A stretch of DNA of 64,000 bases from Gemmatimonadaceae bacterium (GTDB lineage Bacteria; Gemmatimonadota; Gemmatimonadetes; Gemmatimonadales; Gemmatimonadaceae): NCBI GenBank assembly GCA_019186945.1, contig JABAQJ010000005.1, positions 62,001 through 126,000 of the forward strand, written 5' to 3'. This document shows, piece by piece, positions 21,395 through 51,855 of the stretch. The notes under the pieces were generated by a model. The model searched no databases. It had not been told where the DNA came from and was given only the letters and a program-made list of their open reading frames with translations. Position numbers and translations under genes: made by a program. Numbering within the stretch: position 1 is the first letter of the stretch; each line of letters starts with the position of its first letter.

Positions 21395-23158
21395 TCACAA
21401 CAGGTGCTCCCTGAGGAAGGGTGCATCGCCGAATGCCGCCAGCAGACGATAGCGGAGTTCGCGCTCGGCCTCCGCCGCGGTGCGGGCCGACAGTGCCGCG
21501 TTGGCTGCCTCCGCAGCGAACGACGAACTGATGCCGCGTATGATCCGCTTGACAAGCGGAACGGCACGAGGGCTGACGCTCAACTGCCGCACGCCCAGCC
21601 CAATCAGGGCGAACGCCATCAGCGGATGCGATGCCATTTCGCCACAAACTGAGATATCGAGGTCGAACTGTTCGGCGATGTCGGCAGTCCGGCGAACGAG
21701 CCACAGGACGGCCGGATGCAGAGGCGTGAAACGCGAGGCCAGGTTGGCATTGCCTCGATCGACAGCCAGCGTGTACTGCACCAGGTCGTTCGTGCCGATG
21801 CTGAAGAAGGAGACGTCGTTGCCGAACGTGTGCGCAAGGAGCGCCGCAGCCGGCGTCTCGACCATCACGCCTAGCGGAACATCGCGGGCGAACGGAACGC
21901 CGCGCTCGGACAGTTCCGCCGCAGCCTCCGTCAGCAGCGTTCGTGCAGCCGTGACTTCGTCGAGTGTGACCACCAGGGGCAGCATTATCCGCACGTCGCC
22001 ATGCACTCCTGCACGCAGCAAGGCGCGGAGTTGGTCCTTGAACAGGTCCGGCTGGTCCAGACACATGCGGATCGCGCGCCACCCGAGGAACGGATTTGGC
22101 TCGTGAGGGAAACCGCCTGTCGGCAACTTGTCGCCACCGACGTCGTACGTGCGAATCACCACCGGGTGCGGGTAGAAGGCCTCCACCACGCGGCGATACG
22201 CCCGGTACTGCTCTTCCTCGTCCGGCATGGCGGCGCGACCGACCACGAGGAACTCGGTCCGCATCAGTCCCACGCCTTCGGCACCGCTCCTCGCGGCCTG
22301 CTCCGCTTCATCCGGAAGATCGACGTTGGCGCGAATCGTTATGCGGACGCCATTGGTGGTTATCGGTTCGGCATCGACGAGCTTCTGGAGTTCGGCTTCC
22401 GTTTCCTTTTCGACCGCGGCGCGCCGCCTGAATGCTTCTACCTCTGCCTCGCTCGGGTTGACGACGAGCATTCCGCTGGTGCCATCGAGTACCGCGAACT
22501 CGTCGCCGCGCAACCGTTCCGTCGCCTCACGCAACCCCACGACGGCGGGCAGCCCCAACGAACGCGCGAGGATGGCGACGTGCGATATCCGAGTTCCCTC
22601 GTCTGTGGCGATACCGGCGATCGCATCGCGATCGAGTTGGAGCGTCAGGCTTGGCGTGAGGTCGTGCGTCACCAGGATCGCCCCGGTCCCCTTGTCGACC
22701 GCGACCGGGTCGTGATCCGGGAGATCGAGAAGGATCGTCAGAACGCGAATCTGGACATCTGTCAGATCCCGGACTCGTTCCCGCATCATCGGGCTCTGAC
22801 TGCGCCCGAATTGCTGCCGCCATTCCTGCATGACGACGTCGAAGGCCTTCTCGGCAGCAAGGTTCTGTCGGATGTACTCCGCCACCTGTTGTTGCAGGTG
22901 CTCATCCTGGAGGATCGAGATCTGAACCTCGAAGATGGCCGCCTCTTCCGGTCCGGCGTGTTTTTCGGCCTTTGCGACTACCTGTTGAAGGCGGTCACGC
23001 GCGCGGGCGAAGGCTTCGTGCAGTCGTTCGATCTCGTGCGGGACGCGATCGTCCGGCACGATCCGATGCGGAACGTCCGGGACTTCCCAGCGCAGCAGGC
23101 GCACGGGTCCGACGACTATTCCCGGCGAAGCAGAAATCCCGGTCAGTGCGCGTTCCAC
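21395..23158 (-). CDS. ptsI: PTS enzyme I (phosphoenolpyruvate-protein phosphotransferase)
   Basis: The predicted 587-residue protein has the amino-terminal HPr-binding and phosphohistidine domain with GTRISHVAILARSLGLPAVV, where His193 is the phosphorylation site. The PEP-binding barrel has GVGLMRTEFL, GWRAIRMCL, MVETPAA, FSIGTNDLVQYTLAVDR and SVCGEMAS. Enzyme I takes phosphate from PEP and passes it to HPr. It starts with GTG two bases after the hpr stop, so it is translationally coupled. It is the last gene of the PTS operon. Confidence 0.96.
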   Translation of the reverse strand: MERALTGISASPGIVVGPVRLLRWEVPDVPHRIVPDDRVPHEIERLHEAFARARDRLQQVVAKAEKHAGPEEAAIFEVQISILQDEHLQQQVAEYIRQNLAAEKAFDVVMQEWRQQFGRSQSPMMRERVRDLTDVQIRVLTILLDLPDHDPVAVDKGTGAILVTHDLTPSLTLQLDRDAIAGIATDEGTRISHVAILARSLGLPAVVGLREATERLRGDEFAVLDGTSGMLVVNPSEAEVEAFRRRAAVEKETEAELQKLVDAEPITTNGVRITIRANVDLPDEAEQAARSGAEGVGLMRTEFLVVGRAAMPDEEEQYRAYRRVVEAFYPHPVVIRTYDVGGDKLPTGGFPHEPNPFLGWRAIRMCLDQPDLFKDQLRALLRAGVHGDVRIMLPLVVTLDEVTAARTLLTEAAAELSERGVPFARDVPLGVMVETPAAALLAHTFGNDVSFFSIGTNDLVQYTLAVDRGNANLASRFTPLHPAVLWLVRRTADIAEQFDLDISVCGEMASHPLMAFALIGLGVRQLSVSPRAVPLVKRIIRGISSSFAAEAANAALSARTAAEAERELRYRLLAAFGDAPFLREHLL

Positions 23159-23160
23159 CG

Positions 23161-23427
23161 CTATCGTTCCCCGAACTTGTTCGCGATCAGGGCCGCAAGC
23201 GCATCCACCGCATCGCTGGCGTCAGGCCCTTCGGCGCGAAGCGTCAGCACAGCGCCGCACTCCGCCGCCAGCAGCATCACACCCATGATGCTCTTGCCAT
23301 TCACCTCGACGTCGTCGCGAGCGAGCGTGACGTTGCTCTTGTACCGGGCGGCCGCCTTCACGATCTCCGCCGCAGGTCGCGCGTGGAGTCCGTTTTCGTT
23401 CACGATCTGCACCGTGCGTTCGACCAT
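23161..23427 (-). CDS. ptsH: PTS phosphocarrier protein HPr
   Basis: The predicted 88-residue protein contains NENGLHARPA with the phospho-accepting His15 and NGKSIMGVMLLA with the regulatory Ser46. The product can therefore be phosphorylated by enzyme I and also by the HPr kinase encoded in the same operon. The start ATG shares one base with the stop of the EIID gene (TGATG). Having both sites suggests a regulatory as well as a transport role. Confidence 0.95.
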   Translation of the reverse strand: MVERTVQIVNENGLHARPAAEIVKAAARYKSNVTLARDDVEVNGKSIMGVMLLAAECGAVLTLRAEGPDASDAVDALAALIANKFGER

Positions 23428-24191
23428 CACTTCACCGCCCAGAGGAGGATCAACGCGACCTGCGCGACCAGTGCCACCTTCCAACCTTCCACGCGACCGT
23501 GCAGCCGTGCGAGGAGCACACCGCCCACCACAATCACGGCGAGGGTACCTCCCAGTAGCGCCACGCCTGGCTGAACGATCCGTTGCACGACAAGCGGCAA
23601 GCCGAAGCCGGCCAGCAGCAACGCCAGGCTCCCCAGGAGTCTCGGACCGTGCCGGACGAACCGCGTGCCCAGCGAATGCGCCACCTGGATTCCGGTGCGT
23701 AACCCAACCCGGAGTCCCCAGGCACGCAACGCCAGGTTGATGGCATTGTAGAACCCAAGAAACGTGACGACGGTGGCCATGGCACCGCCACCCCAACCGA
23801 AAACGGCCAGTGCTGCCAGGGCGCACGTCGGCAGCAGCGCCGCCCAGACCAAGCGGTCGCCAACGCTACCCAATGGCCCGCAAAGCGCCTTGCGAAAGCG
23901 CGCAATCCGCTCCGGCTCCTCATGTTCCAACTCGGCGCGCACGAGGGCACCGACAGCGACCGACGCCAGATACGGATTGGCATTGAAGTACTGGCTCTGT
24001 CTGCCAAGAGCTGCGCGGTACTCGACGCCGTCCACGCCGCCAGGCAGGAGGCGCAATGCCGGCTCCATGCAGAAGGCGATGCCGTTGCCCAGCATGCCTT
24101 CGTAATTCCACGATGCCTGGATGGCCAGCAGTCGGACGAACATGGACGCTTGCGTCATCCAAGGGACGGTGACCGGGAGTTTGGTCGTCAT
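23427..24191 (-). CDS. PTS mannose-family membrane component EIID
   Basis: The predicted 254-residue protein resembles ManZ-type EIID: MFVRLLAIQASWNYEGMLGN, FCMEPALRLL, FNANPYLASVAVGALVRAE, GPLGSVGDRLVWAALLP and several C-terminal membrane helices. With EIIC it forms the sugar channel. The ATG at 24191 overlaps the EIIC stop by four bases. The in-frame extension upstream lies inside the EIIC gene and is not used. The sugar cannot be named from the sequence. Mannose, fructose, sorbose and amino sugars are all known for this family. Confidence 0.92.
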   Translation of the reverse strand: MTTKLPVTVPWMTQASMFVRLLAIQASWNYEGMLGNGIAFCMEPALRLLPGGVDGVEYRAALGRQSQYFNANPYLASVAVGALVRAELEHEEPERIARFRKALCGPLGSVGDRLVWAALLPTCALAALAVFGWGGGAMATVVTFLGFYNAINLALRAWGLRVGLRTGIQVAHSLGTRFVRHGPRLLGSLALLLAGFGLPLVVQRIVQPGVALLGGTLAVIVVGGVLLARLHGRVEGWKVALVAQVALILLWAVK

Positions 24192-24871
24192 CGTGCCAAC
24201 GCGACTGCAAGACCGGCTGCCACTCCAGCCAGGAACAGCGCTCGGGCGTGGGGGACTGCGCGAAATATCTTCCACACCGCGGAAAGCGCGACGGCGGTCG
24301 CGGTGGCGACGACCACGGCGCGACTGAGGGCCGCATTGACCTCCAGGGTCCGCAGAACGGTGGCTTGAACGGGCATCGCCACAAACACCGCCGCGAGCGT
24401 CAACACGGCACCGCGAAGGAAGTCCGCAGCCAGGCCGTATAGCTGCAAGCCGACGATAGCCTTCCGGGAACCGCTGGCGACGGCATCGCCATGACGTTCT
24501 GCCCACCGCGCATTGAGCTTTCGCAGGTGCACCATCGACCAGCCGCCGAGCCAAGCGCAGAGAAGCGCAATGGCCACGCTGGTGAGCAGGCCACCCACGT
24601 GCCCATCGCCTTGCAGTGCGTAGAGCCCACCGCCAATCATCGACGCGCTTCCCCACTCGGGATAGCGCGCGGCGCCAATGGGAAGCGTCTCCAGTGCGAA
24701 CAGCTCGAGCGTGGCCCCGCAGAGTAGCCCTGCTGCAGGAGATCCCATCGCGGCGCCACCCAGTGTCGCCGCAACGATCGGACGCGATAGCATCGCTTGC
24801 GGGAACGACACGGTATCCAGCCCAAGCAGTCCGCCGAGGACGCCGAACGCGGAGATCGCGACGGGATTCAT
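24188..24871 (-). CDS. PTS mannose-family membrane component EIIC
   Basis: The predicted 227-residue protein is almost entirely hydrophobic helices, with the family features GLLGLDTVSFPQAMLSRPIV, GSPAAGLLCGATLELFALE and a Gly-rich GSASMIGGGLYAL. It forms the membrane translocator together with EIID. The gene is shorter than many ManY proteins (about 265) but has the core. It overlaps the EIIB gene by four bases at its start and the EIID gene by four at its end. Confidence 0.88.
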   Translation of the reverse strand: MNPVAISAFGVLGGLLGLDTVSFPQAMLSRPIVAATLGGAAMGSPAAGLLCGATLELFALETLPIGAARYPEWGSASMIGGGLYALQGDGHVGGLLTSVAIALLCAWLGGWSMVHLRKLNARWAERHGDAVASGSRKAIVGLQLYGLAADFLRGAVLTLAAVFVAMPVQATVLRTLEVNAALSRAVVVATATAVALSAVWKIFRAVPHARALFLAGVAAGLAVALAR

Positions 24872-25359
24872 CGATTCCCCTCGCCAGCCAGCAACTCGTC
24901 CAGTGACAACGGGCGCGCGGCCGGCACGTCCTGGGCAGTGACCAAGACGCCCCGCTTGGCCAGCTGACGAAGATCGTCGGCTTCCTGTGGCGTAAGGAAT
25001 ACGTACCGCAGGCGCTGCGAGCGCCCGGCGCGATGATGTATCCCGCCAACATTGACCGCCGGAATGGAGCCGGTGGCGTCTACCAGCCGGATCATTGTGT
25101 TGATGTCCGCCGTCAGCAACAACCCTGGTCGCTGATCCTCCTGGTATGTCCCCAGCCGCACGGCCGCGGTATCCACCGACTCGAAATACACGTGCATCTC
25201 GGGCGGAACGCCCATCCGATAGAGTTCCTGTTCCCAGTCGCTTCCGGCGACTTCGTCATCGACAAGGACGATGAACGCCAGCCCGAGGGGCTGCCCCCAC
25301 CCCACGACAACCTGACCGTGGATCAGCCGGTCATCGATGCGATAGAGCTCAATCGCCAC
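24868..25359 (-). CDS. PTS mannose-family EIIB
   Basis: The predicted 163-residue protein carries the EIIB phosphorylation motif RIDDRLIHGQVVVGW with the active His14, followed by the usual VLVDDEVA and NVGGIHHRAG segments. It accepts phosphate from EIIA-His and passes it to the sugar during transport. The gene overlaps the end of EIIA by 11 bases and EIIC by four. Length and motif agree with ManX/LevE-type EIIB. Confidence 0.93.
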   Translation of the reverse strand: MAIELYRIDDRLIHGQVVVGWGQPLGLAFIVLVDDEVAGSDWEQELYRMGVPPEMHVYFESVDTAAVRLGTYQEDQRPGLLLTADINTMIRLVDATGSIPAVNVGGIHHRAGRSQRLRYVFLTPQEADDLRQLAKRGVLVTAQDVPAARPLSLDELLAGEGNR

Positions 25360-25771
25360 CGCTTGGGCCTCCGCCGCTTGTGCTGCTCGTCGGGCGCGTG
25401 GACACCAGTAGCGAAGCCCGGCCCTTCTCGGTCGCCAACCGAGCGGCTTCTCCCGCCACCGTACTCTCGGCGAAGAGGAAATCCAGCAGTGCCGCGAGAT
25501 TGGTTCCGGTCACCACGGTCAGGTCCGGCTGCTGTCGCTGGAGCCGGCGCGCCGCCATGGTGCAGCTGCCGGCCGGCAAGTCGGTGAAGATGACTTCCGC
25601 TCCCGATCGTTCGACCAAGTCTGCCATCAGGCGTTCGACGTCCTGGGCGCCGAGTCCACGATTCGTCATTGGCAGGAAAATGTCGTCGCGCCCCGTGATC
25701 TGGAGCACCGCGGACAGCAGCCCGGCGGCGAAATCGGCGTGACCGGCAACGATCGCGCGTGCGCTATTCAT
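25349..25771 (-). CDS. PTS mannose-family EIIA
   Basis: The predicted 140-residue protein has VAGHADFAAGLLSAVLQITG, with His11 as the likely phosphorylation site. FTDLPAGSCTMAARRL and VVTGTNLAALLDFLF, conserved in EIIA-Man, follow. A disordered Ser/Gly-rich tail ends the protein. It receives phosphate from HPr. The gene overlaps hprK by eight bases and EIIB by 11, so the whole chain from hprK to enzyme I is read as one unit. Confidence 0.9.
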   Translation of the reverse strand: MNSARAIVAGHADFAAGLLSAVLQITGRDDIFLPMTNRGLGAQDVERLMADLVERSGAEVIFTDLPAGSCTMAARRLQRQQPDLTVVTGTNLAALLDFLFAESTVAGEAARLATEKGRASLLVSTRPTSSTSGGGPSGGD

Positions 25772-35027: not shown

Positions 35028-36667
35028 TCACATGCGCTCCGGCGCCGACACGCCCAGGATCGTCAGGGCGTTGCGAAGAACGAGCTGGGAGGCGCGCGCC
35101 AGCACCAGGCGCGCGTCGCGGACCTCTGGCGGCGCCTCCAGGACGCGAAGCTTGTGATACCAGTTGTGGACCAGCCGGGCAGTATCGAGCAGGTAGGCAG
35201 CTACGCGATGCGGTTCACGGCTCGCAGCCGCCCCCGACAGCAGTCGAGGGTAGTCCAGCAGGGCCTGGGCGAGTTCCCGCTCCGAATCGTCCGTCAGGAC
35301 CGCGAAGTCGACTTGCGCGCAGCTGACGGACTCCGGGTCGATGCCGCCAACGCGAAATATGCCACTCATGCGCGCGTGCGCCATCTGGACGTAGTAGACC
35401 GGGTTGTCCTCCGACTGCGAGCGCGCCAGATCGACATCGAAGATCAGCTGCGAATCCGCCTTCCGCATCAGGAAGAAGTAGCGGACCGCATCCCGTCCCA
35501 CCTCGTCGATCAGATCCCGCACGGTTACGTAGCTCCCGGCGCGCTTCGAGATCTTCACCTCTTCCCCCCCCCGCATCACCGTAACCATCTGGTGCAACTC
35601 GTATTCGGGATAGCCTTTGGGAATTCCAATGCCCAGCGCCTGCAAGCCAGCCCGCACGCGTACCACCGTCGAATGGTGATCCGCGCCCTGCACATTGATG
35701 CAATGGCGAAATCCACGACGCCACTTGGAGACGTGATAAGCGACGTCAGGCACAAAGTACGTGAACGTTCCATCCGACTTCCGCATCACGCGGTCCTTGT
35801 CGTCACCGTAGTCCGTCGTGCGGAGCCAGAGCGCGCCGTCCTTTCGAACGTGTGTCCGGCGGACTGCAGCATCTTCACCGTTTCGTCGACCATGCCATCG
35901 ACATACAGCGAGGACTCGAGAAAGTACGTGTCGAAGCGCACGCCGAATGCTTGCAGGTCCAGATCCTGCTCCTTCCGCAGTTCGGCCACGGCGAAGCGTC
36001 GAATCGCATCGAGGTCGTCACCGTGCGCATCGCCTGGATGCGTCGCCACATACCGCTCGGCGATGTCCCTGATGTATTCGCCGTGATAGCCACCTTCCGG
36101 TATCGCCAGTGTGCCCGTCGCCAGCTCGCACACCCGCGCCTGGACACTGAGCGCGAGGTTCATGATCTGGACGCCGCCGTCGTTGTAATAGAACTCACGC
36201 GCGACACTCCAGCCCGTGGCTTCCAGCAGCGATGCTATCGCATCGCCCAGTGCGGCCTGACGTCCGTGCCCGACGTGCAACGGGCCGGTGGGGTTCGCGG
36301 ACACGAACTCGACGTTGAAACGCGCACCGCCACCGCTATTGGTATGGCCGAACGCAGTCGGACGGGTGAGAATCTCCTCCAAACCGGCAAAGGCCACCGA
36401 TGGCTGCAACCGGAAATTGATGAACCCCGCACCAGCCACCGTCGCTTCGGCCACGCCGGCTTTCGTAAGATCCATCGACGCGATCAACTCGCGCGCGATT
36501 TCCGCCGGCTTTCGTCGCAGCTGCCGGGCAAGCCCCATCGCCAGGTTGGTCGTCCAGTCACCGAATGCGGGATCGCGTGGCCGCTCCACTATGGGAGTCA
36601 CGTCGGTCGCTCCCATGCGCTGCGCGGATGCCAACAACTCCGATCGCAGCAGTTCGTCAGGGGTCAT
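35028..36667 (-). CDS. argS: Arginyl-tRNA synthetase, split by a one-base frameshift
   Basis: Two abutting frames together make a normal ArgS of about 546 residues. The first (36667-35786) holds the amino domain and the class I signature [18 protein letters not shown]. It should continue as [19 protein letters not shown] but runs out of frame after HTFER. The second frame (ending at 35028) holds [32 protein letters not shown] (KMSKS equivalent) and the anticodon-binding domain. One base appears lost in the T run at 35842-35844 (A run on the coding strand). ArgS is essential and both halves are well kept, so a sequencing or assembly error is most likely. Confidence 0.9.
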
Positions 36668-46844: not shown

Positions 46845-48146
46845 CTATGGAATACCGAAGTTGGTCCGCGTCGCATAGCTGACGCGTAGCCTGGGACGCA
46901 GCGCCGGCGCCGCCCGAGTCGAGTAGAACTGCAACTCGATCGGCGACTGCCCCTCCCGTGTCGCCCGCAGGACGATCGCGCGTTGCGAAGTGTTGGTCCC
47001 GGTGGTCGCCCACGCCCTGAGCACCGTGACCATCTCCAGCTGTCGGAGACCGCTGTCCGCGGGCGTGTACTGCACGGAGTCGAACCCGCTCAGCATGGCG
47101 ACCAGGTACGCCGAGCGCGAGAGATCCGTAACCTCCGTTCCCGCCGTCACGAACTCCGGCTGCACTGTGAACTTCGTCGACGTATCGATGACGCGAACAG
47201 GATGCTGCACGGCGAGCAGCGTGGCGCGCAGCACCGTCGACGAGTCGATGATCTTCGAGGGGATGTCGAAACGCAGAAACGCGCGCCGACCCTCCAGACC
47301 GCCGACGCTCAACAAGTCGCCGGCTACAGGCACCTGCGGGGATCTGAAGACCACCTGATAGTCCGTCAGGTCTCCAGACAGCTCGAGGTTGTCTGTCGGC
47401 GTCATCGATCTCGGGACGACGCTGATGCTTTTCACCGCGGTATCGGCCGGCTGCGGATCGAATCTCACTACTGCGCCCGTTCCTGCATTCACCGTCCCCA
47501 CCAGGAGCGCTACCGGATCTGCACTCGTCACTTGAATGCCCACGCGCAGACGTCGGCCGCTCAGGATTTTCGACAGAACCACGCCATTGTCCAGCGGAAT
47601 GAACGTCGTGTCCTTGATCTGGCTGGTGTCGAGCATTGCCTCGTTGATGAGGCGGTCCGCGCGAAAGACCTTGCGAATCGCTTCGAGCGATGTATCAGGC
47701 GCAGTCGTGTCCACATCGAAGAAGCTGAAGCGGACCGGTGCCGTGTACGTGGACCGGGTGCGGTCGATGACGAGGACAATCCCCGCGCTGTCGATGGCGG
47801 TTATCGTGGAATCGATTCCCGAGCTGCTGGTGAACTTGGTGAGCAGTGTATCGAAACGGATCACGCCGCGGACGTCGACCGTGTCTCCCCGCGTCGCCAG
47901 ATAGAGCGACTGTTCGGCCCCCCTCAGCGGAAACCCGGCGACCGTGGTATCCATGACGATCGCATCCAGGACGGTGTCCCGCACCACGACGTTCTGGTTG
48001 GGACACAGAACCGGACAGGCAGCCCCGGTGTCGAGCGATTCGTTGCAACCGGCAATCAGCGCCACGCCAGCCAACGCCACGATGGGAATCCAGCGAACGT
48101 TAGGCAAGACGGGCAACGCTCCCTTCGATATCGAAGCTATCGACAA
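46845..48146 (-). CDS. Exported lipoprotein of unknown function
   Basis: This 433-residue product has a lipobox ALAGVALIAGC (Cys about residue 34) and Cys-rich CPVLCPNQ soon after. The remainder is beta-rich with many Asp-Thr and Val-Asp pairs, and has a region like a jelly-roll adhesion domain near the C-terminus (RAFLRFDIPSKIID, STVLRATLLAVQHPV). No family was recognised. The ATG at 48146 overlaps the EutN-like gene by 47 bases. A TTG at 48107 preceded by AGGGAG gives a shorter signal peptide and is equally plausible. Confidence 0.68.
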   Translation of the reverse strand: MSIASISKGALPVLPNVRWIPIVALAGVALIAGCNESLDTGAACPVLCPNQNVVVRDTVLDAIVMDTTVAGFPLRGAEQSLYLATRGDTVDVRGVIRFDTLLTKFTSSSGIDSTITAIDSAGIVLVIDRTRSTYTAPVRFSFFDVDTTAPDTSLEAIRKVFRADRLINEAMLDTSQIKDTTFIPLDNGVVLSKILSGRRLRVGIQVTSADPVALLVGTVNAGTGAVVRFDPQPADTAVKSISVVPRSMTPTDNLELSGDLTDYQVVFRSPQVPVAGDLLSVGGLEGRRAFLRFDIPSKIIDSSTVLRATLLAVQHPVRVIDTSTKFTVQPEFVTAGTEVTDLSRSAYLVAMLSGFDSVQYTPADSGLRQLEMVTVLRAWATTGTNTSQRAIVLRATREGQSPIELQFYSTRAAPALRPRLRVSYATRTNFGIP

Positions 48147-48387
48147 TGGCCATGATCACGGCATCCACCGGTTTGTCCCTGGTCGCGGGCGTAAGCCGCG
48201 CTGAACTCCCACTCGCATACAAGACCACTTCGTGCAACCCGGCCCCGACGCTGTCCACCGCAACCACGTACCCCCCTTCCCGCTCCAGCGCCGGCGAAAG
48301 GTTCTCCACCACAAGCAACTTCAACGAATCCAGTGACGCGTCCTTGCGCGTACACCACACGGTCCCGACAACGCGTCCGAGTTTCAT
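48100..48387 (-). CDS. EutN/CcmL-family microcompartment vertex protein (orphan)
   Basis: The predicted 95-residue protein begins MKLGRVVGTVWCTRKDASLD and has LKLLVVENL, YVVAVDSVGAGLHEVVLYA, SGSSARLT and PVDAVIMAIVDSFDIE. These are the core strands and the SGSSAR loop of the pentameric vertex proteins that cap bacterial microcompartments and carboxysomes. No hexameric BMC-domain shell gene and no encapsulation peptide was recognised in the window. It overlaps cdd by four bases and is cotranscribed with deoB and cdd, both nucleoside-salvage enzymes. Confidence 0.88.
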   Translation of the reverse strand: MKLGRVVGTVWCTRKDASLDSLKLLVVENLSPALEREGGYVVAVDSVGAGLHEVVLYASGSSARLTPATRDKPVDAVIMAIVDSFDIEGSVARLA

Positions 48388-48851
48388 GAATGGCTGAGCG
48401 TAGCCGACGTGAACGGGTGCGCCAGCAGTTCCGCCAGCCGCCAGTGTGCGCTGGCGCCGCCCGCAGTGATGCTTACGATTTCCAACGAAGGCGCGAATTC
48501 CACGAGTACCTGCCGGCATATCCCGCAGGGCGGCGTCGGCTCGTCGGCCTCCGTCGCCACCACCAGCGTGGAGAACTCGCGCTCGCCGTTGGCGATCGCG
48601 CTCGCCAACGCGCTCCGCTCCGCACACAAACCCGCGGGAAATACGCTGTTCTCGACGTTGCAGCCGGCGAAAATGCCGCCGGCAGCGCCCACGAGCGCGG
48701 CACCTACCCGAAAGCTCGAGTACGGCGCGTAGGCATTGCGCAGCGCAGAGAAGGCCGCGTCCCGCGCGGACAAAAGTTGCTGTTGTGACGTCAGACCACG
48801 ATCTCCGGAAGAAACGACTGCCCGCGCCCTCGCCAGACCAGACCGAACCAC
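48384..48851 (-). CDS. cdd: Cytidine deaminase
   Basis: The predicted protein has NAYAPYSSFRVGAAL, AGCNVENSVFPAGLCAERSA with the zinc Cys and catalytic Glu, and TPPCGICRQVLVEF with the other two zinc Cys. This is the homotetrameric type. It deaminates cytidine and deoxycytidine. The only standard start in frame, a GTG at 48851, would overlap deoB by 61 bases and give 155 residues. The usual family start falls near a CTG (48794) or TTG (48773), so the true amino end is uncertain. The gene lies in the deoB-eutN cluster. Confidence 0.9.
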   Translation of the reverse strand: MVRSGLARARAVVSSGDRGLTSQQQLLSARDAAFSALRNAYAPYSSFRVGAALVGAAGGIFAGCNVENSVFPAGLCAERSALASAIANGEREFSTLVVATEADEPTPPCGICRQVLVEFAPSLEIVSITAGGASAHWRLAELLAHPFTSATLSHS

Positions 48852-49957
48852 TCCGCGACGGTGGCACCCAAGTCGGAGAACGTCGGTCGCTCACCGATTG
48901 CCCTCGCCCGCACCTGACTGCCGGTAATGAGCACCGGGACGCGCTCCCGCGTGTGATCCGTCGATGGCGTCGTCGGGTCGTTTCCGTGGTCGGCCGTAAT
49001 CGCGAACAGGTCGCGCTCCCTCAGGCGGCCCAGCATGGACGGCAACGCCTCGTCAAACTGACGAAGCGCGCCGTAGAACCCCGCGACATCATTTCGGTGC
49101 CCGTACTGCTGGTCGAAATCTACAAGGTTGGCAAACAAGAGCCCACCGCCCGACCCGTCGAGCCACTCGACTATCGCACGGATGCCCTCCGTATTGTCCG
49201 CAGTGTGTCGCGAGACAATTCCGCGGCCCGCAAACAGGTCATCCACCTTGCCAACCCCGAATCGCGGTATCCCGCCGCGCTCCAGCTCGTCCAGCAGCGT
49301 CGTACCGGTGGGCGCTATCGAGAAATCGCGCCTATTCGGCGTTCGCCGATACTCCCCGGCAGCGCCGAGGAACGGTCGGGCTATGACCCGGGAAACCCCG
49401 TACTCACCTGCCAGCAGGACGCGAGCAACCTCGCAAGCACGATAGAGCTCCTGCAGAGGAATCCATCCCTCATGGGCAGCAACCTGAAACACCGAATCGG
49501 CACTCGTATACACGATCCAGCTACCCGTCTCGGCCTGTTCGGTCGCGAACCGTTCGATCATGGCTGTCCCACTACCGGTGCTGTTGCCCAAGACGCCCCG
49601 ACGGGTTCGTCGCGAGAACTCGGCGACCAAATCCCGCGGGAATCCATTGGGAAAGGTTGGAAACGGTTGCGCCAAGTGGAGTCCCGCGATCTCCCAATGA
49701 CCGGTCGTGCTGTCCTTGCCGGCACTCTGGGGCTGCATCGTCCCCCAGGCAGCCTCCACGTCTCCCTGATTGCTCAGACCGCGAATCGGCGCGCATCGGC
49801 CCAACCCCAAACGGTCCAGACTCGGCAGCATCATGCCCCCGACCGCGTTCGCGATGTTTCCCAGGGTGTCCGAGCCAGCGTCTCCGTATGCCTCGGCGTC
49901 GTGCGCCACACCGATCCCGACTCCATCCAGCACCAGGATGACGGCGCGCCTGTTCAT
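48791..49957 (-). CDS. deoB: Phosphopentomutase
   Basis: The predicted 388-residue protein is an alkaline-phosphatase-superfamily metalloenzyme: AVILVLDGVGIGVAHDAEAY, GSDTLGNIANAVGG, GKDSTTGHWEIAGL, FANLVDFDQQYGHRND and ITADHGNDPTTPSTDHTRE. It interconverts ribose or deoxyribose 1- and 5-phosphates in nucleoside breakdown. The Asp and His metal ligands are all present. The start overlaps the alr stop by ATGA. Confidence 0.95.
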   Translation of the reverse strand: MNRRAVILVLDGVGIGVAHDAEAYGDAGSDTLGNIANAVGGMMLPSLDRLGLGRCAPIRGLSNQGDVEAAWGTMQPQSAGKDSTTGHWEIAGLHLAQPFPTFPNGFPRDLVAEFSRRTRRGVLGNSTGSGTAMIERFATEQAETGSWIVYTSADSVFQVAAHEGWIPLQELYRACEVARVLLAGEYGVSRVIARPFLGAAGEYRRTPNRRDFSIAPTGTTLLDELERGGIPRFGVGKVDDLFAGRGIVSRHTADNTEGIRAIVEWLDGSGGGLLFANLVDFDQQYGHRNDVAGFYGALRQFDEALPSMLGRLRERDLFAITADHGNDPTTPSTDHTRERVPVLITGSQVRARAIGERPTFSDLGATVAEWFGLVWRGRGQSFLPEIVV

Positions 49958-51036
49958 GCCTGGCCTCCGAGGAAGATACGCGGCAGCCGCTGACGCAGTC
50001 CCGCGAGCAGCTCATAGGGTGACATGTCGGCAGTCCGGGCAACTTCATTGACATCGAGGTCTTCGTCACCATCTCGTCCGATGAACGTTGCCATGTCGCC
50101 CACGCGACAGTCGACACCGGTCACATCCAGCATGGTCATGTCCATCGTCACCAAACCAGCCACAGGCACGCGCCTTCCATGCACCAGCGCAGACCCGCGA
50201 TTGCTCAATGCACGACGATAGCCATCGGCATAGCCGAGTGCCGCGGTGGCAATCCGCCGAGTTCCATGCGCACGGTAGGTCGCGGAGTAGCTGACTGTCT
50301 CTCCATCCGGCACGTCCCGGAGGGACACGATCCGCGCCCTGACGCTCACGACCGCCATCGGCCGCACCACGGCACCCTCACCCCCGCCGGCCCCATACAG
50401 GAAGACGCCCGGCCGCACGAGATTCCAGGGCGAGGGTGAGTGACGCTCGAGCCAAGGGCTGCACTCTGCGTGAAGGAGTCCCGGTCGCACCGGAAGCGCG
50501 GCAACTGCCTCGCGGAAGCGTGCCTCCTGCAGCTGAACCGTTTCGTCACCCACGTCTGCGCTGTGGTAATGCGTGCACGCGCCTTCGGGCGGATGGCGAG
50601 CTGCAATCTCCCGAACGTCTCCGACGCAGTTCCAGGGCAGCCCGGCCCGATGCATCCCTGTATCGATGGAAAGGTGCCACGGGGCATCTGACGTGCGGCA
50701 CCACACGGCGATGGCCTGCGGATCGCCAAGGACGGGCGTCAGTCGGCATTGTCGCGCTGCGGGGAAGTCCCATTCGAGCAGCGGCGTCATCACCAGAATT
50801 GGCCGCTCGATCCCAGCTCGGCGCAACGCATCACCCTCGACCACGGTAGCGACGCCATAACCCCATGGATCGAGGCACTCTAGTGCGTGCGCAATCGGGA
50901 TGGCCCCCAGACCGTAGGCATCCGCCTTGATCATGGGCACGATCCGGACCCGTGCCCTCTCGGCCATCACTTGGGCATTATGCGTGAGCGCGCCAAGGTC
51001 GACTTCGACCCAGGCGCGCCGTCGATCTTGGTCCAT
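49954..51036 (-). CDS. alr: Alanine racemase
   Basis: The predicted 360-residue protein has WVEVDLGALTHNAQVMAERA, then MIKADAYGLGAIPIA with the PLP-binding lysine. LSIDTGMHRAGLP, LRPG-like VRPGVFLYGAGG, AALGYADGYRRALSN and MTMLDVTGV of the second domain follow. It supplies D-alanine for peptidoglycan. The ATG at 51036 is 48 bp from the divergent mazG start, so both promoters share that short space. An upstream in-frame stretch is not protein-like. Confidence 0.95.
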   Translation of the reverse strand: MDQDRRRAWVEVDLGALTHNAQVMAERARVRIVPMIKADAYGLGAIPIAHALECLDPWGYGVATVVEGDALRRAGIERPILVMTPLLEWDFPAARQCRLTPVLGDPQAIAVWCRTSDAPWHLSIDTGMHRAGLPWNCVGDVREIAARHPPEGACTHYHSADVGDETVQLQEARFREAVAALPVRPGLLHAECSPWLERHSPSPWNLVRPGVFLYGAGGGEGAVVRPMAVVSVRARIVSLRDVPDGETVSYSATYRAHGTRRIATAALGYADGYRRALSNRGSALVHGRRVPVAGLVTMDMTMLDVTGVDCRVGDMATFIGRDGDEDLDVNEVARTADMSPYELLAGLRQRLPRIFLGGQA

Positions 51037-51084
51037 TGGCGCTCGCAATGCAGGGTCGGTAGTATACGGGGAACGGGGAGACCG

Positions 51085-51855
51085 ATGCAAGCCAAGGCCA
51101 CACTTGAAGATACACTCGCGCTCATGCGCGACCTGCGTGCTCGTTGCGAGTGGGACGCCGCGCAGACGCATGACTCGTTGCGTCCCTACCTGATTGAAGA
51201 AGCCCACGAACTCGACGAAGCCCTTCGTGAGCGGAACGACTCCCGGATTCGGGACGAACTCGGAGACGTTCTCCTTCAGGTCTTGTTTCACTCCGTCGTC
51301 GCGGAGGAACGAGGGGCTTTCGACATGCACGACGTGTCGGCGGGTCTCATCGCCAAGATGAGACATCGGCACCCGCACTTGTACGGCGACGGCGAGAGAC
51401 AGGAGTGGGAGCGCCTGAAGGCGGAGAAGCGCCGTCGGATCGAGGATGGTCTGGCGTCCGGTCTACCGTCTCTGCATCGAGCCCATCGGCTGCAGGATCG
51501 CGCGTCCGGCATCGGCTTCGACTGGGAGGATACAGCCGGTCCTGCCGCCAAGGTCGAAGAGGAACTGCGCGAGGTACGCGCCCATTTGCGCATGGAGCCG
51601 TCTGTCCCGGCAGCCTCGACGAATGCGGAGCTCGAACTGGAGCTCGGCGATCTGTTGTTCGCGGTGGTGAATCTGTGCCGTAAGGCGGGTGTCCATGCTT
51701 CGCTCGCGCTCGACAGGGCCAACGCCAAGTTCGCGCGACGGGTTGCCGCGATCGAGGCCCTGGCGGAGCAGCGCGGGATCGATGTCAGGACCGCCGGGTT
51801 GGCGGTACTGGATGCCTTGTGGAACGAAGCGAAAGCCGCCGAGCGTTTGCGTTAG
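51085..51855 (+). CDS. mazG: Nucleoside triphosphate pyrophosphohydrolase MazG
   Basis: The predicted 256-residue protein has two all-helical NTP-PPase modules. The first shows CEWDAAQTHDSLRPYLIEEA, HELDEAL and RDELGDVLLQVLFHS with the metal Glu and Asp. The second has EELREVRAHL and LELELGDLLFAVVNLCRK. It hydrolyses (d)NTPs to monophosphates, removing abnormal nucleotides. GGGGAG precedes the ATG at 51085, so the in-frame upstream codons are not used. The TAG stop lies inside a CGTTAGGC octamer. Confidence 0.94.
   Translation: MQAKATLEDTLALMRDLRARCEWDAAQTHDSLRPYLIEEAHELDEALRERNDSRIRDELGDVLLQVLFHSVVAEERGAFDMHDVSAGLIAKMRHRHPHLYGDGERQEWERLKAEKRRRIEDGLASGLPSLHRAHRLQDRASGIGFDWEDTAGPAAKVEEELREVRAHLRMEPSVPAASTNAELELELGDLLFAVVNLCRKAGVHASLALDRANAKFARRVAAIEALAEQRGIDVRTAGLAVLDALWNEAKAAERLR

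What the first reader, a model, noticed from the sequence alone, without database searches (positions are those of the whole stretch)
48100..49957. Orphan microcompartment vertex gene in a nucleoside-salvage operon
A complete EutN/CcmL-type gene overlaps cdd, which overlaps deoB. These enzymes feed (deoxy)ribose phosphates into metabolism, and known sugar-phosphate-using microcompartments also enclose phosphopentose enzymes. No BMC hexamer gene or aldolase is in the window. Either a shell lies elsewhere, or this pentamer has a role without a shell, for example as a scaffold for these enzymes.
Basis: partly seen in the sequence, partly recalled or inferred. Interest (0 to 1): 0.55.

Follow-up and report, generated by a model that had tools for sequence, protein, structure and literature searches.

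The report
Scattered organelle for DNA-sugar breakdown
The lone vertex gene is not an orphan: it is one of three vertex genes of a protein-shelled bacterial organelle whose parts lie in four places of the same genome, and the neighbouring and matching enzymes suggest that the organelle burns the sugar of DNA building blocks.

Summary
In detail: a complete EutN/CcmL (BMC-P) gene overlaps cdd by 4 bp, just downstream of deoB. The "orphan" part does not. The same genome carries two BMC-H genes with an acetaldehyde-dehydrogenase-like AldDH and PduL (105 kb away on the same contig), two more BMC-P genes overlapping deoC, and a second rpiB of a kind found almost only in shell-bearing relatives. The three core enzymes (DeoC, AldDH, PduL) carry encapsulation-peptide-like ends; DeoB and Cdd do not. 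The cdd–BMC-P junction occurs in 15 of 25 BMC-P-positive genomes among 298 surveyed in the phylum; the site is empty in 18 of 18 P1-less genomes fetched. One relative holds cdd–P1–rpiB–P–P–deoC in a single locus, and in other phyla deoB sits beside the same BMC-P family. Best reading: a dispersed deoxyribose-5-phosphate metabolosome; DeoB and Cdd are cytosolic feeders, P1 caps the shell. It works like the published SPU type but has the dispersed layout of the published "FRAG" type, whose function its authors left open. Limits: all evidence is sequence; phylum-wide associations rest on few independent events; deoB's presence does not track the shell.

The parts
48100..48387 (-). BMC-P (EutN/CcmL) vertex protein, here called P1
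   Evidence: PF03319 E 2.5e-29, positions 1-83/83; PDB 5v74 E 4.2e-23; 37 invariant columns of 95 in 15 sequences
48384..48773 (-). cdd, cytidine deaminase; proposed feeder outside the shell. Start uncertain (TTG 48773, CTG 48794 or GTG 48851)
   Evidence: TIGR01354 131.8 bits over cut-off 113.65; starts listed; no encapsulation-peptide-like motif
48791..49957 (-). deoB, phosphopentomutase; proposed feeder outside the shell
   Evidence: NF003766 475.7 bits and TIGR01696 420.4 bits, both over cut-off; no encapsulation-peptide-like motif
49954..51378 (-). alr-like ORF (maximal), start of the conserved neighbourhood; housekeeping, not claimed as part of the organelle
   Evidence: conserved upstream of deoB in shell-bearing and shell-less relatives; name read by eye
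46845..48146 (-). lipoprotein-like hypothetical ORF (maximal), conserved downstream neighbour; marks the other border of the P1 site, not claimed as part of the organelle
   Evidence: directly follows cdd in 18 of 18 P1-less sites

Best explanation
P1 is one of three vertex proteins of a small bacterial microcompartment whose genes are dispersed over four places of a Gemmatimonadaceae-type genome: (1) alr-deoB-cdd-P1 (window); (2) BMC-Pb, BMC-Pa, deoC (C1:510-512 kb); (3) BMC-H1, BMC-H2, AldDH, PduL, thioesterase (C6:1.3-5.2 kb); (4) a second rpiB (C1:384 kb). Proposed working: nucleoside phosphorylases and Cdd release deoxyribose-1-phosphate in the cytosol, DeoB converts it to deoxyribose-5-phosphate, which enters the shell; encapsulated DeoC cleaves it to glyceraldehyde-3-phosphate and volatile acetaldehyde; encapsulated AldDH and PduL turn acetaldehyde into acetyl-CoA and acetyl-phosphate. 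P1 closes vertices. Shown: the genes, their families, their co-occurrence, the terminal peptides and the neighbourhoods. Inferred: that a shell assembles, that these enzymes are inside it, that Cdd and DeoB are outside, the substrate, and the pathway order.
For: Own genome has 2 BMC-H and 3 BMC-P genes with AldDH and PduL beside the BMC-H genes and deoC overlapping a BMC-P gene. AldDH's best model is acetaldehyde dehydrogenase (acetylating), 535.9 bits, though under its cut-off of 620.1. Over 298 genomes of the phylum BMC-P and BMC-H co-occur: 21 have both, 4 BMC-P only, 1 BMC-H only over cut-off, 272 neither. The second rpiB: relatives at E<=1e-35 in 22 of 298, 21 of them BMC-P-positive. DeoC carries an encapsulation-peptide-like N-terminus in 21 of 21 shell-bearing genomes tested, 2 of 16 shell-less ones; among fetched relatives PduL N-terminus 9 of 10, AldDH C-terminus 5 of 11, DeoB 0 of 30 at either end, Cdd 0 of 27 (N) and 0 of 33 (C); in the own genome DeoC, PduL and AldDH have it, DeoB, Cdd, RpiB and the thioesterase do not. 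PduL's C-terminus and this RpiB's N-terminus share a further module. One Gemmatimonadetes record (L164) has cdd-P1-rpiB-Pb-Pa-deoC in one locus with the same 4-bp cdd/P1 overlap. deoB lies within about 4 kb of a P1 relative in 15 further loci outside Gemmatimonadota (12 Ignavibacteria-type or Tariuqbacter, 3 Lentisphaerae/Kiritimatiellae full SPU-like loci). Purine and pyrimidine nucleoside phosphorylases are in the genome.
Against: No experiment, no expression data, no structure of a shell. deoB is widespread in the order with or without a shell (159 of 298), and 11 of the 25 BMC-P-positive genomes have no deoB match at 1e-30, including the three (G084, G097, G177) that keep cdd-P1 without deoB: deoB is tied to P1 by place, not by presence. 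The cdd-P1 site in the phylum may be one ancestral event. On the DeoC tree shell presence and the terminal peptide each need only 3 changes, so the counts are not independent and the tree-aware sign test cannot reach significance. The motif was written after seeing many of the sequences. 10 of 11 DeoC proteins tested in the second genome set (10 Ignavibacteria-type, 1 L164's) fail it, though all have an N-terminal extension. Four BMC-P-positive genomes lack a BMC-H hit (G009, G038, G260, G271, all fragmented). No BMC-T gene was found, unlike SPU loci.
Confidence: 0.78

Rival explanations
1. P1 is a shell vertex, but its place beside cdd and deoB is hitch-hiking on a housekeeping operon, and the organelle works on some other aldehyde source.
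For: alr-deoB-cdd is a housekeeping neighbourhood present in shell-less relatives; other scattered shell genes sit beside lpxH, dnaK and rhomboid genes that have nothing to do with sugars; 11 of 25 BMC-P-positive genomes lack deoB.
Against: deoC itself overlaps a BMC-P gene and bears a terminal peptide; cdd, rpiB and deoC share one locus with P1 in L164; deoB sits by P1 relatives in other phyla. This rival mainly lowers the claim about Cdd and DeoB, less that about DeoC.
Confidence: 0.13
2. DeoB and Cdd are themselves cargo inside the shell.
For: Probable co-transcription with a shell gene (4-bp overlap of cdd and P1).
Against: No encapsulation-peptide-like motif at either end (DeoB 0 of 30, Cdd 0 of 27 and 0 of 33), and Cdd ends look alike with and without P1 (by eye).
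Confidence: 0.05
3. P1 works without a shell, as a pentameric scaffold for DeoB and Cdd.
For: Only that BMC-H genes are far from P1 and that four BMC-P-positive genomes lack a BMC-H hit.
Against: BMC-H genes are present in 21 of 25 BMC-P-positive genomes; the four exceptions are fragmented assemblies of 210 to 600 contigs.
Confidence: 0.03

Closest known systems
SPU (sugar phosphate utilization) microcompartments (Axen 2014 PMC4207490; Sutter 2021 PMC8217296; passages read)
   Same: DeoC-type aldolase, RpiB-type isomerase, AldDH; proposed catabolism of DNA sugar
   Different: Here the signature enzymes and shell genes are not in one locus, no BMC-T was found, and the AldDH is only about 30% identical to that of the SPU-like locus of relative G020
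FRAG microcompartments (Sutter 2021; passages read)
   Same: Shell genes in several genomic places, BMC-P triplet, occurrence in Gemmatimonadetes and Ignavibacteriae, AldDH next to some shell genes
   Different: The paper names no signature enzyme or function for FRAG; here deoC, rpiB, cdd and deoB are linked to it. Whether this genome's set would be typed FRAG by the paper's own models was not testable
HO (Haliangium ochraceum) microcompartments (Sutter 2021; passages read)
   Same: BMC-P triplet; satellite locus with two BMC-P genes and an aldolase; EP-like N-terminus on some aldolases
   Different: HO loci have BMC-T proteins; none was found here
Family 4B A-domain encapsulin operons with DeoC (PMC8346489; passages read)
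   Same: DeoC associated with a protein-shell-like component
   Different: Unrelated protein (HK97-type A-domain)

Membership tests
BMC-P (PF03319, EutN/CcmL) | Whole-length match to the family profile | tested here: met
   E 2.5e-29, 83 of 83 positions
BMC-P (PF03319, EutN/CcmL) | Forms pentamers at shell vertices | not testable with these tools
   Only homology to solved members
Bacterial microcompartment (any) | BMC-H and BMC-P genes in the genome | tested here: met
   2 BMC-H, 3 BMC-P
Metabolosome core | AldDH and PduL-type phosphotransacylase with shell genes | tested here: met
   H1-H2-AldDH-PduL in the own genome and 11 relatives; PF00171, PF06130
SPU microcompartment | pfam01791 DeoC-type aldolase in the system | tested here: met
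   TIGR00126 240.3 bits over 117.3; overlaps a BMC-P gene
SPU microcompartment | pfam02502 RpiB in the system | tested here: met
   Second rpiB, unlinked; 21 of the 22 genomes with it are BMC-P-positive
SPU microcompartment | Both enzymes in one locus with the shell genes | tested here: not met
   Four separate places; so not filed as SPU
FRAG microcompartment | Shell genes in several genomic locations, with a BMC-P triplet | tested here: met
   Three places, three BMC-P genes
FRAG microcompartment | Shell-protein subtypes as in the catalogue's own models | not testable with these tools
HO microcompartment | BMC-T (tandem-domain) shell proteins | tested here: not met
   Only two PF00936 hits, adjacent single-domain BMC-H genes

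The most novel reading that the evidence does not exclude
The 'FRAG' microcompartments, whose function the 2021 catalogue left open, are dispersed nucleoside-sugar metabolosomes: their shell genes have been stitched into housekeeping nucleoside and pentose-phosphate operons (deoB, cdd, deoC), so that vertex supply is co-expressed with the feeder enzymes, and RpiB and PduL are held together in the lumen by a shared terminal module.
Probability: 0.45. Interest if true: 0.7.

Novelty: new variant of a known kind. Interest (0 to 1): 0.52.

Why it matters
The 2021 catalogue says that FRAG loci lack an obvious signature enzyme and hopes that a future correlate will reveal their function (PMC8217296, passages). 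The neighbourhoods here name a substrate (deoxyribose-5-phosphate from nucleosides) that can be tested at once in a cultured Gemmatimonadota or Ignavibacteria strain. It also suggests a complete organelle encoded with no central operon, so orphan-looking vertex genes in genomes should be read as pointers to a pathway.

Tried and rejected
Scaffold without shell: dropped once BMC-H genes were found. DeoB or Cdd as cargo: no terminal peptide. Reading the near-perfect counts as strong statistics: Fisher p-values of 2e-8 (DeoC peptide) and 3e-27 (co-occurrence) ignore descent; the tree gives 3 changes and no usable sign test, so I lean on the separate loci (L164, Ignavibacteria, Kiritimatiellae/Lentisphaerae) instead. 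Filing it as SPU: the one-locus feature was not met. Filing it as HO: no BMC-T.

Rows left out of counts: one search tested DeoC in 21 of the 25 BMC-P-positive genomes; left out were G084 and G274 (cut off by contig ends), G009 (distant DeoC) and G177 (no DeoC match listed). For PduL, L077 was left out because its alignment did not reach the N-terminus. One search tested 11 of 13 genomes; G299 and G310 had no deoC match. Only 80 of 528 P1 relatives in genome contigs were returned, the best by score, so the 15 deoB neighbours are of 80 loci; 9 of the 80 are Gemmatimonadota by title or by our survey (7 of the cdd type, L164, and the consolidated L214).

Full report
OBSERVATION. The gene at 48100-48387 (minus) is a complete BMC-P gene: PF03319 over 83 of 83 positions, E 2.5e-29; best solved relative PDB 5v74, E 4.2e-23. 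Its ATG overlaps the cdd stop by 4 bp. cdd and deoB pass their NCBIfam cut-offs. Whether cdd overlaps deoB depends on the start chosen.

THE SHELL IS ELSEWHERE. The genome (3.95 Mb, 20 contigs, listed 100% complete) has two PF00936 genes, at C6:4573-5101, and three PF03319 genes, the window's and a pair at C1:511449-512057. I fetched both places. At C6 the order is H1-H2-AldDH-PduL-thioesterase; at C1 it is Pb-Pa-deoC, deoC overlapping Pa. Profiles: DeoC TIGR00126 240.3 bits over 117.3; PduL PF06130 2.1e-59; AldDH best TIGR02518 (acetylating acetaldehyde dehydrogenase) 535.9 bits, under its 620.1 cut-off. A second rpiB with an N-terminal extension lies at C1:384 kb, besides an ordinary one at C6:248 kb.

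PHYLUM SURVEY. Of 298 genomes, 25 have PF03319 and 22 have PF00936 over cut-off, 23 at the E-value limit; 21 have both, 4 only BMC-P, 1 only BMC-H, 272 neither. P1 directly follows cdd in 15 of the 25: the own genome and 14 fetched loci; deoB precedes cdd in 12 of the 15. In 8 of the 25 P1 is in a consolidated locus with AldDH and H1; in G009 it is in another setting; in G260 only the Pb-Pa pair was found. Pb-Pa-deoC occurs in 14 genomes and H1-H2-AldDH-PduL in 12, own genome included in both.

EMPTY SITES. In 18 of 18 P1-less deoB-cdd sites fetched with the downstream gene in view (16 shell-less genomes and G020, G050, whose P1 is in the consolidated locus), cdd is followed within 135 bp by the same hypothetical gene that follows P1 in the window. 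A nineteenth, G257, ends at a contig edge after cdd. In the 16 shell-less genomes with a close DeoC, Pa and Pb were not found in the deoC locus.

TERMINAL PEPTIDES. A simple amphipathic pattern, written after looking at sequences, is found at the DeoC N-terminus in 21 of 21 shell-bearing and 2 of 16 shell-less genomes; shuffling expects 0.4 and 0.06. PduL N-terminus 9 of 10, AldDH C-terminus 5 of 11, DeoB 0 of 30 at either end, Cdd 0 of 27 (N) and 0 of 33 (C). The 2 exceptions, G225 and G198, may be relics. Descent matters: on a tree of the 37 DeoC cores, shell presence needs 3 changes and so does the peptide, and independent pairs are too few for a test.

RPIB. Relatives of the long RpiB at E<=1e-35 are in 22 of 298 genomes; 21 are BMC-P-positive, the other is G049. 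Its N-terminus has a module like the PduL C-terminus (own pair: 18 of 39 identical, E 0.005 for the single comparison). By eye, the module is in 13 of 13 RpiB proteins of shell-bearing genomes whose N-terminus can be read there (L263 is cut by a contig end), in 11 of 11 PduL C-termini of relatives, and not in the ordinary RpiB (L143) or that of G049 (L268).

OTHER PHYLA. The one genome-contig scan returned the best 80 of 528 P1 relatives. tblastn with our proteins shows: L164 (record titled Gemmatimonadetes bacterium ARS67) with cdd-P1-rpiB-Pb-Pa-deoC, cdd and P1 again overlapping by 4 bp; three Planctomycetota-titled loci with P1, rpiB, BMC-P genes and deoC (L154, L175, L194); twelve loci, titled Ignavibacteria or relatives and Tariuqbacter, with deoB upstream of P1 (L156, L167, L168, L170, L177, L183, L190, L192, L196, L199, L219, L223); three Lentisphaerae/Kiritimatiellae loci with rpiB-deoC-BMC-T-H1-P1-AldDH-BMC-T-Pb-Pa-deoB (L182, L195, L209). 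In the 13 genomes behind the twelve deoB loci plus L164, 13 of 13 have BMC-H and 11 of 13 have deoC over cut-off; only 1 of these 11 DeoC proteins (that of L164's genome) passes the strict pattern, though all have an extension.

CONSOLIDATED RELATIVE. G020's locus holds rpiB, deoC, a CcmP-like BMC-T (NF053796, 369.8 over 340), H1, P1, AldDH, a PduT-like BMC-T, Pb and Pa: an SPU-like locus within the same order.

SUPPLY ROUTE. The own genome has two purine nucleoside phosphorylases and a thymidine/pyrimidine phosphorylase (NF004490 340.9 over 269). One purine phosphorylase lies about 13 kb from deoC beside an adenosine-deaminase-like and a nucleotidase-like ORF, both named by eye.

AGAINST. deoB is in 159 of 298 genomes, mostly without a shell, and not found in 11 of 25 with BMC-P. 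The cdd-P1 site may be one inherited event. No BMC-T was found, so how sugar phosphates cross the shell is open. Everything is sequence evidence.

LITERATURE. The SPU idea of DNA-sugar catabolism is published (PMC4207490, PMC8217296; passages). The catalogue lists FRAG types without signature enzyme and with function open, and an HO satellite of two BMC-P genes with an aldolase. In the open-licence library, searches pairing microcompartment with deoxyribose, Gemmatimonad, deoC, FRAG, sugar phosphate utilizing, phosphopentomutase, nucleoside, Ignavibacter and ribose-5-phosphate isomerase listed no paper that, from titles and the passages I read, links deoB or cdd to a shell gene; other listed papers were not opened, and most subscription papers are not held.

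TAXON. Not told; P1 orthologues of the same survey match named Gemmatimonadetes/Gemmatimonadaceae records, so Gemmatimonadaceae is inferred.

Noticed in passing
window 35028-36667, minus: ArgS-like protein (by eye) read as two ORFs with a 4-bp overlap; split gene or frameshift.
   Followed up: no
window 21395-25771, minus: By eye, PTS-like enzyme I, HPr, IIC, IIB and IIA genes in a row; no IID noticed.
   Followed up: no
L090 (G225) and L100 (G198): DeoC keeps an encapsulation-peptide-like N-terminus although no shell gene was found; possibly a relic of a lost organelle.
   Followed up: partly
PduL C-terminus (L006:1768-2853) and RpiB N-terminus (L130:1216-1932): Shared terminal module of the form LVTERDV...LTPxARDxAxxLG, only in shell-bearing genomes among those read.
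   Followed up: partly
L006:4351-4833 and 11 relatives: BMC-H2 has a conserved C-terminal extension (KVVELRxLARR...FPIKGRDVARAGRDELLAAF) of unknown role.
   Followed up: no
L170:3321-3987: PIN-type toxin-antitoxin-like gene pair (by eye) between deoB and the BMC-P pair in an Ignavibacteria-type genome; a PIN-like gene also in L183.
   Followed up: no
L042, L050, L051 (G084, G177, G097): cdd-P1 kept although no deoB was found in these genomes; another phosphopentomutase may serve.
   Followed up: no
L162 and L218: Records titled Klebsiella pneumoniae carry a BMC-T/H1/P1/AldDH/BMC-T/P/P locus like those of Deltaproteobacteria-titled records; probably mislabelled bins.
   Followed up: no
L049 (G009): A different BMC-P locus with a 636-aa protein between P1 and AldDH.
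   Followed up: no
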